Origin: Candidatus Brocadiaceae bacterium
Lineage (GTDB): Bacteria > Planctomycetota > MHYJ01 > JACQXL01 > CAKKQI01
NCBI GenBank assembly: GCA_919901895.1
Contig: CAKKQI010000442.1
Span: forward strand, 1-10,053
Reading direction: 5' to 3'
DNA length: 10,053 nucleotides
Below the pieces are notes generated by a model. It made no database searches. It saw only the letters and a list, made by a program, of their open reading frames with translations, and was not told the DNA's origin. Below, in pieces: positions 1 through 4,915 of the stretch. How positions within the stretch are numbered: the first letter of the stretch is position 1; each line of letters begins with the position of its first letter. The position numbers and the translations under genes were made by a program.

Positions 1-42
1 ATGGGTGGTATGGGCGGTATGGGCGGCGGAATGCCTTATTAA
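1..42 (+). CDS. groEL: Chaperonin GroEL, C-terminal tail only (first of two tandem copies)
   Basis: The first 14 codons, in frame 1, read as Gly-Gly-Met repeats followed by Met-Pro-Tyr and a TAA stop. This flexible tail is typical of canonical GroEL subunits, where it projects into the folding cavity from the equatorial domain. The rest of the gene lies upstream of the window, so nothing can be said about its active site. A second groEL begins 46 bases downstream with no terminator hairpin between, so the two are probably cotranscribed. The tail alone makes the call quite safe, because few other bacterial proteins end in repeated GGM. Confidence 0.88.
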   Translation: MGGMGGMGGGMPY

Positions 43-88: not shown

Positions 89-1705
89 ATGGCTAAACAA
101 TTAATGTTTGACGAAGAGGCCAGGCAGAAAATCCAGAAAGGCGTCAATGCCGTTACCGAGGTAATGAGGATAACACTTGGCCCGAGCGGCCGCAATGTCA
201 TCCTGGAAAAAAAATTCGGCGCACCGGAATCAATTAAAGACGGCAATGATATTTCTAAGGAAATAGAACTGGTTGACCCTTTTGAAAATATGGGAGCTAA
301 AATGGTGGCCGAAGCCGCCTCCAGAACCTCCGATGTGGTCGGCGATGGAACCACGACTGCAGCGGTTTTGACCAGGGCCCTTTATGAAGAAGGGTTGAAA
401 TATCTGGCCGCCGGCGCAAACCCGATGCTGATTAAAAAGGGAATTGACCGGGCCGTTCAAACCGTTACCACCGAATTAAAAAAAATGAGCCGGCCGATAA
501 AAAATAAAACTGATTACCAACGCATCGCAACCATTTCAGCTCACTACTCCGATTTAATCGGACAACTGGTAGCTGATGCGATGGAAAAAGTGGGGACCGA
601 AGGAACTATTACCGTAGAAGAAGGAAAAGGCCGTGAAACAACCCTGGAATTCGTTGAAGGATTACAATTTGATAAAGGTTACCTCTCGCCTTATTTTATC
701 AATAACCCGGAAACACTTACCTGTACGCTGGATGATAGTTATATTCTTCTTTATGAAAAGAAAATTTCTAATGTTCAGGAAATATTGCCTTTATTAGAAG
801 CCGTCCATCAAACCGGCCGGCCTCTTTTAATTATTGCCGAAGAGGTGGAAGGCGAAGCGTTAACTTCCTTAATTCTTAATAAACTTAACGGAATTTTGCG
901 GGTGGCGGCCACCAAGGCGCCGGCCTTCGGCGACCGTAAAAAAGCGATGCTGGAGGATATCGCCGTTCTGACCGGCGGCCGGCTTATCTCCGATGAATTA
1001 GGGCTTAAACTGGAAAACATCACGCTGGATGACCTGGGACGGGCTCAGACCGTTCGTTGTGAAAAAGAAAATACCGCTATTGTCGGCGGCCAGGGCGACA
1101 AAAAGAAAATTGAAGAACGGATTCAACAGATCCGAAACCAGATCAAACAAACTACCTCGGATTATGACCGGGAAAAATTAGAAGAACGGTTGGCTAAATT
1201 AACCGGCGGCGTGGCCGTCATCAAAGTGGGCGCGCTGATGGAATCGGTGCTTAAAGAAAAAAAGGCGCTGGTTAATAATGCCGTTCATTCGGCTCAGGCC
1301 GCGCGCGAGGAAGGAATCCTGCCGGGCGGCGGAACGGCTTATTTGAAAACCATTCCGGTAATTAATAATCTGGCCGCGGCCACCGGAGATGAAAACGAAA
1401 AATTCGGAATTAATATTGTCGCCCGGGCCCTGGATGTCCCGTTAAAACAAATCGCGGCTAATGCCGGTTTTGACGGCGGCATTATCGTTGAGGAACTTAA
1501 AGAACGAAACGAACCGCATCTCGGCTTTGATGCCGTTTCCGGCAAATTCGTCAATATGCTGGAGACCGGAATAATTGATTCCACTAAATTTCTCCGGGTC
1601 GCGTTACAGAATGCAGCCAGTATCGCCGGCCTGATGCTTACTTCCTGCACACTCGTAACGGATCTGAAAGAAAAGAAGAAAAAGATTGAAGGCAGCGTCA
1701 GGTAA
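89..1705 (+). CDS. groEL: Divergent second GroEL-type chaperonin (60 kDa), probable slow or inactive ATPase
   Basis: A full-length group I chaperonin of 538 residues; the family normally has about 540-550. The ATG follows a TAGGAG ribosome site at 75-80 with 8 bases of spacing. Conserved equatorial elements are the TLGP loop (29-32), KDG with D51 (E. coli D52) and GDGTTTA (85-91, D86 = E. coli D87). The apical GYLSPYF stretch and the hydrophobic helix positions that bind substrate and GroES are kept (E. coli Y199, Y203, F204, L234, L237, L259, V263, V264 equivalents). Three departures stand out. N397 replaces the catalytic D398 (AAT at 1277-1279). S154 and L394 replace the D155/R395 salt-bridge pair. 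The protein ends in a lysine-rich tail instead of GGM repeats. I infer a paralogue with altered ATP cycling that may work alone or in mixed rings with the upstream GroEL. The family is certain; the functional change is inferred from an alignment made from memory. Confidence 0.96.
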
Positions 1706-2981: not shown

Positions 2982-3623
2982 ATGCAACAGAAAAAGAAAG
3001 AAACACCTGAATCGGAAAAACTAAACCGAGCAAAACAGGGAAATGACCGCGAAGACGAACCCGGGAAAATACCGGCTGAAACTCCCGCCGGCCCGGTCTG
3101 CGAAACGGTTCAGGAGGAAGAAACAATCCTTGCCCGGAAACTTCAGAAAGAAATAGACGAATTGAAAAAATTAGCCCTGGAACGCGATGAATTCCTGGCC
3201 ATGCTCCAGCGAGTTCAGGCCGATTTTTCGAATTATCAAAAAAGGAGCCGGCAGGAAAAAATTTGCTGGGAACAATACCGGGATGAAGAGATCCTGAAAG
3301 AATTATTGCCGGCTTTTGATAATCTGGAACGAACTGTTAAAATAAAATGCGAATCCCGGGACGCCGTTTGTCTTCAAGAAGGAATTGACTTAACCGAAAA
3401 AGAAATTTTTCGGATTCTGGAAAAACGCAAGGTGATCCGGATAAAAACAATCGGGGAAAAATTTAATCCGGCTCGGCACGAAGCCGTCGGGATTAGGGAA
3501 ACCGTTGAGTCTGAACCGGGAATAATTGTAGAGGAAATCAGGGCGGGTTATCTTTTACAGGAGCGGATTCTGCGTCCGGCCCAGGTAATAATTTCAGCTA
3601 ACCCGCAACAACAAAAGTTATGA
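2982..3623 (+). CDS. grpE: Nucleotide exchange factor GrpE
   Basis: GrpE releases ADP from DnaK and completes the Hsp70 cycle with DnaJ. The 213-residue protein has a charged, disordered N-terminus (1-42) and a long helix or coiled coil (about 43-105) used for dimerisation. It then has the ELLPAFDNLER signature (107-117), the GEKFNPARHEAV segment (158-169) and the C-terminal beta-wing motif GYLLQERILRPAQV (189-202), which contacts DnaK. The ATG lies 16 bases after the dnaJ stop, with a GGGGA ribosome site at 2971-2975. Pairing with dnaJ implies stoichiometric expression for a DnaK encoded elsewhere. No CIRCE operator (TTAGCACTC-N9-GAGTGCTAA) is visible before the pair. Three cysteines (40, 123, 130) are a minor oddity. 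Identification is secure. Confidence 0.97.
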   Translation: MQQKKKETPESEKLNRAKQGNDREDEPGKIPAETPAGPVCETVQEEETILARKLQKEIDELKKLALERDEFLAMLQRVQADFSNYQKRSRQEKICWEQYRDEEILKELLPAFDNLERTVKIKCESRDAVCLQEGIDLTEKEIFRILEKRKVIRIKTIGEKFNPARHEAVGIRETVESEPGIIVEEIRAGYLLQERILRPAQVIISANPQQQKL

Positions 3624-3698
3624 ACCACTAGGCTTGACCTTAAATTCCGCTAATATTTCGGGATTTCATTTATTTCGCGTTTTCGTGTTAAAAAATTG

Positions 3699-3727
3699 TT
3701 GACAGAGTTTCTTAAATACGTTATTCT
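3699..3727 (+). promoter_or_regulatory. Sigma-70-type promoter for the membrane-protein/rpmB unit
   Basis: TTGACA at 3699-3704 is a perfect -35 match. A 17-base spacer separates it from TATTCT at 3722-3727, a four-of-six -10 match. Transcription would begin near 3734, giving a leader of about 108 bases before the ATG at 3842. It lies in the 218-base gap after grpE, where no terminator hairpin is visible, so some readthrough from grpE is possible. Confidence 0.7.
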
Positions 3728-3775
3728 AATAAGCAAAATTTGGCATAGTAAATTTTCGTAAAAGAAATAATACGA

Positions 3776-3823
3776 TCACCCCGCCATGCGGTGAGGTCCA
3801 ATTCGTCCCGATGTATATCGGGG
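3776..3823 (+). repeat. Two small hairpins in the 5' leader of the membrane-protein gene
   Basis: The first hairpin pairs TCACC..GC (3776-3784) with GCGGTGA (3788-3794) around a CAT loop, with a two-base CC bulge. The second pairs CCCGAT (3807-3812) with ATCGGG (3817-3822) around a four-base loop, extendable by a T-G wobble. The second resembles the CCCG/CGGG palindromes found elsewhere in the window. Both lie between the promoter and the AGGAGG ribosome site (3832-3837). They could be palindromic repeats or a translational control leader; neither is followed by a T-run, so they are not terminators. Confidence 0.55.
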
Positions 3824-3841
3824 CTCAGATGAGGAGGAATT

Positions 3842-4915
3842 ATGCGAGAACTAAAAGGTAATTGGCGTGATATTTTTAACGGATTTTCCGTTGCCCTGGA
3901 CTTTAAAAAATTATTAGCCGGGTTTATCGGAATGGTGTTAACTCTGGTGGTGGTTGGCGGTATCCCTTTTTTAACCACTTCTTATAAATTAACACCCAAT
4001 AACTTTTCAGCCGTCTGGACTAATTACGGTTATGCCTGGACCGAAATTTTAAATTTTCCCTGGTGGAAAAGTACCTTAATAATTGCCAGCGTTTATTTTT
4101 TGACATTGCTAATCTGGTCTTATTTCGGCGGAGTCATCAGCCGGATTGCGGCGGTAAACCTAACCAAAGACGAAGGGTTGGAGTTTTCCAAAGCGCTTTC
4201 TTTCGGCACCCAAAAATACCTGTCTTATTTTTTCCCCTGGATTATCCCCGTCATCGGTTTTCTTTTCTTTTGGCTGTGTAATTTCGCCGGCGGGTTAGTC
4301 GGGCAAATTCCGGTAATCGGCGAATTTTTGGTCGTCCTATTTTTACCGTTGGCTATTCTTTCCGGTTTTATTATGGTTTTTATTGCCGTGGGGTTTGTTT
4401 TTGGTGGATGTTTATTTACGCCGACTATCAGCGTGGAAGGAAGCGATAGTTTTGATGCGATTAGCCGGAGTTTTTCTTACCTTTACGCCCGGCCGTGGCA
4501 TTATATTTTTTACCAAATCACCTCTCTTGTTTACGGCGTAATCACGACGGCTTTCGTCTGGACCTTCGGTCTTTTAATGCTCTGGACCGCTTTCCGGGCT
4601 GTTCATTCAGGGATGGGAGACAAGTTCAGGCAAATGTTCATCGTACTTGAGGGCGGGCAAGAAACTATTCCGCTCACGGTCCAAATTTCTGCTTATATTA
4701 TGGGGATCTGGTTAATCCTTATCCTTGGATTGATGCTGGCTTATGTTATTTCTTATAAATATACCTCGCAAAGTATCATTTACCTTTTGATGAGAAAGAA
4801 AGTAGATGATATTGATGTCAAAGAGATCTACGAAGAAACGGAAGAAGAACTGCCTTTAACCGGTTCGGATGAACTAAAATCAGAAGAGAAGCCGGTCGAA
4901 ACAGAAACGAAATAA
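3842..4915 (+). CDS. Uncharacterised six-helix integral membrane protein
   Basis: I cannot name a function. The 357-residue protein has about six hydrophobic segments: 24-44, 76-97, 128-152, 158-190 (long, possibly two helices), 220-246 and 285-305. A strongly acidic, probably cytoplasmic tail follows (about 316-357, rich in Glu with Lys). The N-terminal 23 residues are amphipathic, with no signal peptidase site. A segment near 195-220, reading SVEGSDSFDAISRSFSY then RPWHY, strongly resembles a conserved stretch I recall from hypothetical membrane proteins of Planctomycetota and related phyla. The layout is broadly like polytopic proteins such as the glycerophosphodiesterase membrane domain or DUF975 families, but I would not assign either. 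The start is set by an excellent AGGAGG at 3832-3837. It has its own promoter (3699-3727), and rpmB follows after 50 bases. Confidence 0.85.
   Translation: MRELKGNWRDIFNGFSVALDFKKLLAGFIGMVLTLVVVGGIPFLTTSYKLTPNNFSAVWTNYGYAWTEILNFPWWKSTLIIASVYFLTLLIWSYFGGVISRIAAVNLTKDEGLEFSKALSFGTQKYLSYFFPWIIPVIGFLFFWLCNFAGGLVGQIPVIGEFLVVLFLPLAILSGFIMVFIAVGFVFGGCLFTPTISVEGSDSFDAISRSFSYLYARPWHYIFYQITSLVYGVITTAFVWTFGLLMLWTAFRAVHSGMGDKFRQMFIVLEGGQETIPLTVQISAYIMGIWLILILGLMLAYVISYKYTSQSIIYLLMRKKVDDIDVKEIYEETEEELPLTGSDELKSEEKPVETETK

What the first reader, a model, noticed from the sequence alone, without database searches (positions are those of the whole stretch)
1274..1282. Second GroEL has asparagine in place of the catalytic aspartate (E. 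coli D398)
Codons AAT AAT GCC give N396-N397-A398 where canonical GroEL has E/D-D-A before LH.TRAA..EG. D51 (D52) and D86 (D87) are intact, so nucleotide and metal binding should persist, but D398 positions the attacking water and its loss in E. coli GroEL nearly abolishes hydrolysis. A natural D-to-N chaperonin beside a normal GroEL could act as a slow-timer ring, a holdase, or a regulatory subunit in mixed rings.
Basis: partly seen in the sequence, partly recalled or inferred. Interest (0 to 1): 0.75.

Follow-up and report, generated by a model that had tools for sequence, protein, structure and literature searches.

The report
Tandem GroELs lacking the catalytic aspartate
In one little-known group of planctomycete bacteria, a pair of GroEL protein-folding machines encoded side by side appear to have swapped the amino acid that fires ATP hydrolysis for asparagine or serine, so they probably work as very slow folding chambers, and one draft genome shows no normal GroEL at all.

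Summary
In detail: codons 396-398 (window 1274-1282) read N-N-A, and N397 aligns with E. coli D398; D51/D86 (= D52/D87) are intact. It is not a private mutation. Asn marks a whole clade of GroELs (18 of 307 homologues listed) found in 8 of 9 held genomes of the window's order, with synonymous codon variation and dN/dS 0.06. In the window's genome that gene is split off; its fragment is 80% identical to a Ser-type GroEL. A canonical groES-groEL lies elsewhere (contig C45). Both clades descend from the planctomycete tandem groEL-groES-groEL-dnaJ; position 398 changed at least three times in this class. One relative (94% complete draft) shows only the Asn and Ser GroELs, and a groES without groEL beside it. 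Best reading: a neofunctionalised tandem pair that still binds ATP, probably GroES, and hydrolyses very slowly (E. coli D398A: 2-3% ATPase, still folds). Mixed rings, holdase action and D52-driven hydrolysis are not excluded. Nothing biochemical was tested.

The parts
1..42 (+). C-terminal tail (MGGMGGMGGGMPY, stop) of the upstream tandem GroEL; rest of the gene is off the contig, its first 150 codons probably at the end of contig C54
   Evidence: Sequence read directly. C54 7978-8427 encodes 150 residues, 80% identical to the Ser GroEL of G001 and at most 67% to the other rows listed, with T at position 92 as in 13 of 13 Ser rows and 0 of 97 readable other rows outside the Asn clade; the same small gene lies beside it in G000 and G001. 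The join and residue 398 are not shown.
89..1705 (+). Asn-type GroEL (D398N), 538 aa, no Gly-Met tail (ends KIEGSVR)
   Evidence: ORF; PF00118 249 bits, TIGR02348 744 bits against cut-off 582; AF2 mean pLDDT 84.7, Foldseek best hits open-state GroEL chains, TM (query) 0.84-0.91, GroES-bound chains about 0.64
1277..1279 (+). Codon AAT, N397 = E. coli D398, second residue of the catalytic aspartate dyad
   Evidence: Alignment with E. coli GroEL and 307 homologues
1274..1276 (+). Codon AAT, N396 = E. coli E397 (not fixed in the clade: E, N, Q or D)
239..241 (+). Codon GAC, D51 = E. coli D52, the remaining dyad aspartate
245..247 (+). Codon AAT, N53 = E. coli V54, polar in every Asn-clade row; next to the dyad loop
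   Evidence: V in 0 of 19 Asn rows
344..346 (+). Codon GAT, D86 = E. coli D87 (metal), within intact GDGTTT
   Evidence: D87 in 307 of 307
887..889 (+). Codon AAC, N267 = E. coli R268 (substrate contact, inter-subunit salt bridge partner); replaced also in some D398-type relatives
   Evidence: role from passages of PMC10723157 and PMC2664929
1871..2965 (+). DnaJ, co-directional, directly downstream as in relatives
2982..3623 (+). GrpE, co-directional

Best explanation
The window GroEL is one half of a tandem pair (upstream Ser-type, downstream Asn-type) derived from the planctomycete groEL-groES-groEL-dnaJ cluster. In this order both tandem copies lost D398 and had it replaced by one specific residue each, while most genomes keep a separate canonical groES-groEL. 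Shown: the substitutions, their fixation in two clades over an order, their separate origins, purifying selection, intact ATP-binding residues in this protein. Inferred: each still binds ATP and GroES, closes the chamber on ATP binding, but hydrolyses slowly because the water-activating dyad is reduced to D52, so that the folding cage stays shut for a long time (slow timer) for a subset of clients.
For: The Asn clade (19 rows) and the Ser clade (13 rows) each have 100 support and hold no row with another residue at 398, while neighbouring residues (397, 401-404) vary. Codons differ synonymously (AAT/AAC; TCA/TCC/TCT). dN/dS 0.056 (Asn, G003/G005) and 0.09 (Ser, 178 codons), like DnaJ 0.047. 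In the Asn rows T30, G32, P33, D87 are invariant, D52 is kept in all but one, D495 in all that cover it. Groove residues stay hydrophobic (199, 203, 204, 234, 237, 259, 263). E. coli D398A binds ATP normally, has 2-3% ATPase, encapsulates and folds (PMC3326522, PMC3813556 passages). Gene order Ser-groEL, (groES), Asn-groEL, dnaJ, grpE; in D398-type relatives groES lies between the two groELs in 34 of 34 tandem loci fetched outside the order. In Planctopirus limnophila a group of three GroEL paralogues contains three essential proteins (PMC10632474 section 10), so planctomycete GroEL copies need not be redundant.
Against: No ATPase or folding measured. DFT work on human Hsp60 calls the equivalent of D398 a poor base and lets the D52 equivalent act (PMC12557358 passages), so Asn might slow hydrolysis less than Ala does. 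In the Asn clade T90 is kept in only 8 of 19 rows and T91 in 12 of 19, and one member has D52G, which points beyond a mere timer change in those members. GroES is absent between the two groELs in G000, G006 and G007.
Confidence: 0.5

Rival explanations
1. Hydrolysis is retained at a useful rate: D52 acts as the base, Asn (or Ser) still holds the water, and residue 54 (Val in ordinary GroEL, polar here) helps. The pair is then just a divergent but ordinary GroEL.
For: V54 is replaced in all 19 Asn and 12 Ser rows. Of 12 upstream copies read in class genomes outside the order, 10 have V54A and 1 V54S, 11 of the 12 with D398 still present, so in the upstream lineage the pocket changed before D398 was lost. 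DFT on Hsp60 suggests the D52 equivalent can be the base (PMC12557358).
Against: D398A in E. coli leaves 2-3% activity with D52 intact. Residue 54 is not one fixed residue (N, H, K, R, S, E, Q in Asn rows; N, A, D, H in Ser rows), unlike a new catalytic group.
Confidence: 0.2
2. The Ser- and Asn-type subunits assemble with each other into mixed rings, a bacterial counterpart of the alpha/beta chloroplast chaperonin.
For: Adjacent co-directional genes. Both lost D398 in the same order, while 13 of 14 other class genomes keep it in every tandem copy that was read.
Against: The Gly-Met tail difference (8 of 13 Ser, 0 of 19 Asn rows) is ancestral to the tandem pair (upstream 13 of 16, downstream 0 of 28), so it is no sign of new partnership. 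Bacterial paralogues are said to prefer homo-oligomers (PMC5904260 passage). In G009 only the upstream copy lost D398.
Confidence: 0.3
3. The Asn-type protein is a holdase or scaffold that no longer needs an ATP cycle.
For: T90 replaced by A or V in 11 of 19 Asn rows, D52G in P0013; no Gly-Met tail, which matters for function in E. coli (PMC11978752 passages).
Against: This window's protein keeps GDGTTT, D52, D87, D495. Tail loss predates D398 loss. GroES is encoded inside the cluster in G003, G004 and G005.
Confidence: 0.2
4. Decay: the pair is redundant next to the canonical GroEL and is losing function.
For: dN of the tandem genes is 2.0-2.8 times that of the canonical GroEL of the same genome pairs (G004/G006: 0.206 and 0.169 against 0.074; G004/G008: 0.181 against 0.089).
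Against: Open frames without stops in the order's Asn and Ser genes, dN/dS 0.06-0.09, clade-invariant replacement residues, and no canonical GroEL found in G001.
Confidence: 0.04
5. Sequencing, assembly or alignment artefact.
For: MAG of 509 contigs; the window starts inside a Gly-Met repeat.
Against: Asn in 18 cluster representatives from several sources, in 8 genomes; conserved residues on both sides of the site are in register.
Confidence: 0.01

Closest known systems
GroEL / group I chaperonin (TIGR02348, PF00118)
   Same: Full-length homologue, 52% identical to E. coli GroEL, above both curated cut-offs, same predicted fold, D52, D87 and GDGTTT
   Different: D398 replaced by Asn; V54 and R268 replaced; no Gly-Met tail; tandem partner of the Ser type
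E. coli GroEL D398A (laboratory mutant, PMC3326522 and PMC3813556)
   Same: Same position lost, D52 kept
   Different: Natural, fixed, Asn or Ser rather than Ala, with many further differences; no rate measured
Upstream and downstream tandem GroELs of Planctomycetota (e.g. Brocadia, Scalindua, Phycisphaerae)
   Same: Direct relatives: same two clades; groES between the pair in 35 of 36 tandem loci and dnaJ downstream in 34 of 36
   Different: They keep D398 in every row read outside the order, except the upstream copy of G009
Chlamydial GroEL2 and GroEL3 (NCBIfam 'variant chaperonin' exceptions NF038370, NF038369)
   Same: Divergent extra GroEL paralogues kept beside a normal one
   Different: Window protein scores 208 and 243 bits, far below their cut-off of 600; it is much less divergent from GroEL. 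Their residue 398 was not checked

Membership tests
GroEL (TIGR02348 equivalog) | Profile score over curated cut-off | tested here: met
   744 against 582 bits
GroEL (TIGR02348 equivalog) | Group I chaperonin fold | tested here: met
   AF2 pLDDT 84.7; Foldseek TM (query) 0.84-0.91 to open GroEL chains, about 0.64 to GroES-bound chains
GroEL (TIGR02348 equivalog) | ATP/Mg site: D52, D87, GDGTTT | tested here: met
GroEL (TIGR02348 equivalog) | Catalytic D398 | tested here: not met
   Asn at 1277-1279; Asp in 280 of 307 homologues listed in three searches, the other 27 being the Asn (18) and Ser (9) clades
GroEL (TIGR02348 equivalog) | Double heptameric ring, GroES-dependent folding, ATPase | not testable with these tools
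   no biochemistry
Chlamydial variant GroEL2/GroEL3 | Score over the exception-model cut-off (600) | tested here: not met
   208 and 243 bits
Hetero-oligomeric group I chaperonin (chloroplast Cpn60 alpha/beta type) | Mixed rings of two subunit types | not testable with these tools
   only gene adjacency and parallel change

The most novel reading that the evidence does not exclude
Some members of this order (G001 at least) run on D398-less GroELs alone: a Ser-type and an Asn-type subunit, possibly in one mixed complex, that fold proteins with ATP binding and only very slow hydrolysis. That would make fast D398-driven ATP hydrolysis dispensable for GroEL function in a living cell.
Probability: 0.18. 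Interest if true: 0.88.

Novelty: new variant of a known kind. Interest (0 to 1): 0.62.

Why it matters
D398 is the residue whose laboratory removal gives the slow GroEL used to study the ATP-bound states. A natural, conserved set of D398-less GroELs lets one ask what the ATP timer is for: whether a slow cage is useful for certain clients, and whether a cell can live on it. The class also offers a stepwise series (V54A with D398; D52E; D398N; D398S) for enzymology of the aspartate dyad. Where the sources name these proteins at all, they call them plain 'chaperonin GroEL'.

Tried and rejected
Sequencing error: rejected. Apparent joint loss of V54, R268 and D398 in both clades (3 of 117 conserved columns fully lost in both, hypergeometric p 0.0007): weakened by my own later calls. 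The 353 D-type rows left out partial upstream copies; of 12 class-level upstream copies read, 10 have V54A and 1 V54S, 11 of 12 with D398 kept, and R268 is Q in 14 of 67 further D398-type homologues. I therefore do not claim V54 or R268 as part of one linked event. An earlier thought that KDGAS marks the Ser type was dropped: class upstream copies with D398 have it too; T92 and 80% identity are used instead. CIRCE element: none within 5 mismatches in 14 loci, except one 5-mismatch hit over 4 kb from the genes. Decay: judged unlikely. Viral or plasmid origin: not pursued. Rows dropped: one search left out ORFs under 450 aa and cut proteins over 700 aa; its 26 Asn and 15 Ser rows hold truncated duplicates of the same genes, so 19 and 12 or 13 are used. 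One search had organism labels for only 70 loci, so class genomes outside the order were redone. The single S in the tally is the 24%-identity protein L188, not a GroEL of this kind; 5 pieces there do not cover position 398, and for G017 and G019 no upstream copy was read. Trees are the quick method (SH-aLRT only). Homologue searches list only the best 120 of about 8000 scored, so Asn or Ser at 398 in distant GroELs is not excluded. Literature: the listings (titles and starts of abstracts) showed no report of a natural D398 loss in bacterial GroEL; the library is open-access PMC only.

Full report
What is there. The window is the whole contig C442 of a 2.50-Mb genome in 509 contigs (93% complete). 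It opens inside the Gly-Met tail of one GroEL (1-42), then carries a complete 538-aa GroEL (89-1705), DnaJ, GrpE, a protein without family match, bL28, ArgS and a YhdP-like protein. Codons 396-398 are AAT AAT GCC. Against E. coli GroEL, N397 is D398; D52, D87 and GDGTTT are kept.

How widespread. In the first homologue search the top 18 of 120 listed proteins (61-100% identity) all have Asn at 398 and the other 102 have Asp; D87 is kept in 120 and D52 in 119. A profile search with the Asn clade returned the same 18 on top, with a drop from 936 to 808 bits to the next protein. Over the 307 distinct proteins of the three searches: 280 Asp, 18 Asn, 9 Ser. These lists are the nearest relatives only, not a sample of all GroELs. 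Among the 23 genomes held for the class, window-like Asn-type genes occur in 8, all in the window's order of 9.

The neighbour is not normal. In L009 the gene directly upstream of the Asn GroEL is a GroEL with Ser at 398. Searching with it gave a second coherent set: 9 of 120 listed proteins with Ser, the other 111 with Asp. In the order, Ser was read in G001, G003, G004, G005, G006 and G007 (6 of 9). G008's contig ends before the gene. G002 shows a single upstream-type GroEL, with Asp, near a contig edge. In the window's own genome the upstream gene is split: C54 ends in 150 N-terminal residues of such a GroEL. That fragment is 80% identical to the Ser GroEL of G001 (others listed: 67% or less), has T92 as all 13 Ser rows do and none of 97 readable rows outside the two clades, and has the same small gene beside it as in G001, with a ClpC-like gene on the same contig in both (ClpC is my reading of the translation). 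Residue 398 of the window's own partner is not covered. The canonical GroEL (EDALHAT) sits with groES on C45.

Cluster. In the 80 loci, 36 hold two groELs in a row; groES lies between them in 35 and dnaJ downstream in 34 (in 2 the contig ends within 300 bases), so groEL-groES-groEL-dnaJ is the ancestral arrangement. The order keeps it with Ser and Asn copies and grpE in G003, G004 and G005; groES is missing from between the two in G006, G007 and, with a 46-bp gap, in the window. Six of nine genomes also show a canonical groES-groEL (G000, G003, G004, G006, G007, G008). G001 (94% complete) shows two GroELs only, Ser and Asn. Its one groES, nearer to the canonical-type GroES proteins (60-65%) than to the tandem types (55-58%), is followed 12 bp downstream by another gene, which reads like an arginine decarboxylase, instead of groEL (the name is my own reading). 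This suggests true loss but remains an absence in a draft assembly. In G005 (56% complete) a canonical copy was not found either, which says little.

Evolution. A tree of 87 rows puts all 19 Asn rows in one clade within the downstream tandem copies, and all 13 Ser rows in one clade within the upstream copies (100 support each). With 50 class-level GroELs added (131 rows) position 398 needs three changes: Asn in the order's downstream copy, Ser in its upstream copy, and Asn in the upstream copy of G009, a class member outside the order. Of 12 upstream copies read in the class outside the order, 10 have V54A, one V54S together with D52E (G013), one keeps V54 (G015): a graded series of dyad-loop changes, mostly with D398 in place. 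The Ser codons are TCN, two changes from an Asp codon, so an intermediate existed; Ala or Tyr by the code.

Selection. Asn codons are AAT or AAC, Ser codons TCA, TCC or TCT. dN/dS between two species of one genus is 0.056 for the Asn gene, 0.09 for 178 codons of the Ser gene, 0.047 for DnaJ; window against G001 gives 0.07 with dS 2.4, near saturation. The tandem genes have 2.0-2.8 times the dN of the canonical GroEL for the same genome pairs. So the proteins are maintained, under looser sequence constraint than housekeeping GroEL.

Mechanism. In GroEL a density between D52 and D398 was assigned to the attacking water (PMC10723157 passage). D398A keeps ATP binding, has 2-3% ATPase, encapsulates and folds (PMC3326522 and PMC3813556 passages), although one apical transition is slowed more than sixty-fold and release of unfolded protein 4- to 15-fold. 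With D52, D87 and the phosphate loop intact and the groove residues still hydrophobic, the likeliest behaviour of the window protein is an ATP-driven, slowly resetting cage. Steps shown: sequence, phylogeny, selection. Steps inferred: ATP and GroES binding, slow hydrolysis, client set. Against a uniform picture: T90 is lost in 11 of 19 Asn rows and D52 in one, and computed chemistry for Hsp60 gives the D398 equivalent a weak role as base (PMC12557358 passages).

Is the pair functional as a pair? The shared cluster and the loss of D398 in both copies in one order suggest joint work; G009 (only the upstream copy changed) shows the losses are separable. Planctomycete GroEL copies are not interchangeable in at least one cultured species: a GroEL group of Planctopirus limnophila contains three essential proteins (PMC10632474, section 10 read). 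Whether those include the orthologues of this pair was not checked; one protein of that species was listed in the search with the Ser type (P0200).

Literature seen: passages only of PMC3326522, PMC12557358, PMC1892554, PMC11978752, PMC5904260, PMC5143341, PMC5941174, PMC10723157, PMC2664929, PMC3813556, PMC5636168; one passage and section 10 of PMC10632474; abstract and outline of PMC5406781.

Verdict. Observation confirmed; interpretation corrected from 'odd GroEL beside a normal one' to 'tandem GroEL pair of which both have lost D398'. A new variant of a known kind, of good interest because it makes the role of the GroEL ATP timer testable in nature.

Noticed in passing
L186 (G009 C364) 375-2117: Upstream tandem GroEL of a class member outside the order with Asn at 398 (DNALSS) and V54A, while its downstream neighbour keeps Asp: an independent loss.
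   Followed up: yes
L214 (G013 C115) 498-2177: Upstream tandem GroEL with Glu in place of D52 (TTEGSA) but D398 kept: the other half of the dyad altered.
   Followed up: partly
G001 C233 (L164) 3207-4058: groES without groEL beside it; the gene 12 bp downstream reads like a pyruvoyl-dependent arginine decarboxylase (not searched); no canonical GroEL found in this 94% complete genome.
   Followed up: partly
G009 C211 (L188) 1206-2357: Protein 24% identical to GroEL over about 390 residues, without the D52, D87 and D398 motifs: a very divergent chaperonin-like protein.
   Followed up: no
L010 540-2427: Two overlapping ORFs of KYDDKGN-type repeats between the Ser GroEL and groES.
   Followed up: no
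window 3842-4912: 357-aa protein with several apparent membrane segments and no Pfam or NCBIfam match, conserved at the same place in G001 (58%), between grpE and bL28.
   Followed up: no
L129 6921-7316 and L165 2130-2513: Small protein of about 130 aa with an N-terminal membrane-like segment next to the upstream tandem GroEL in G000 and G001.
   Followed up: no
L005 about 2455-2525: Canonical GroEL of the window's genome is interrupted by a run of N in the assembly (two ORF pieces).
   Followed up: no
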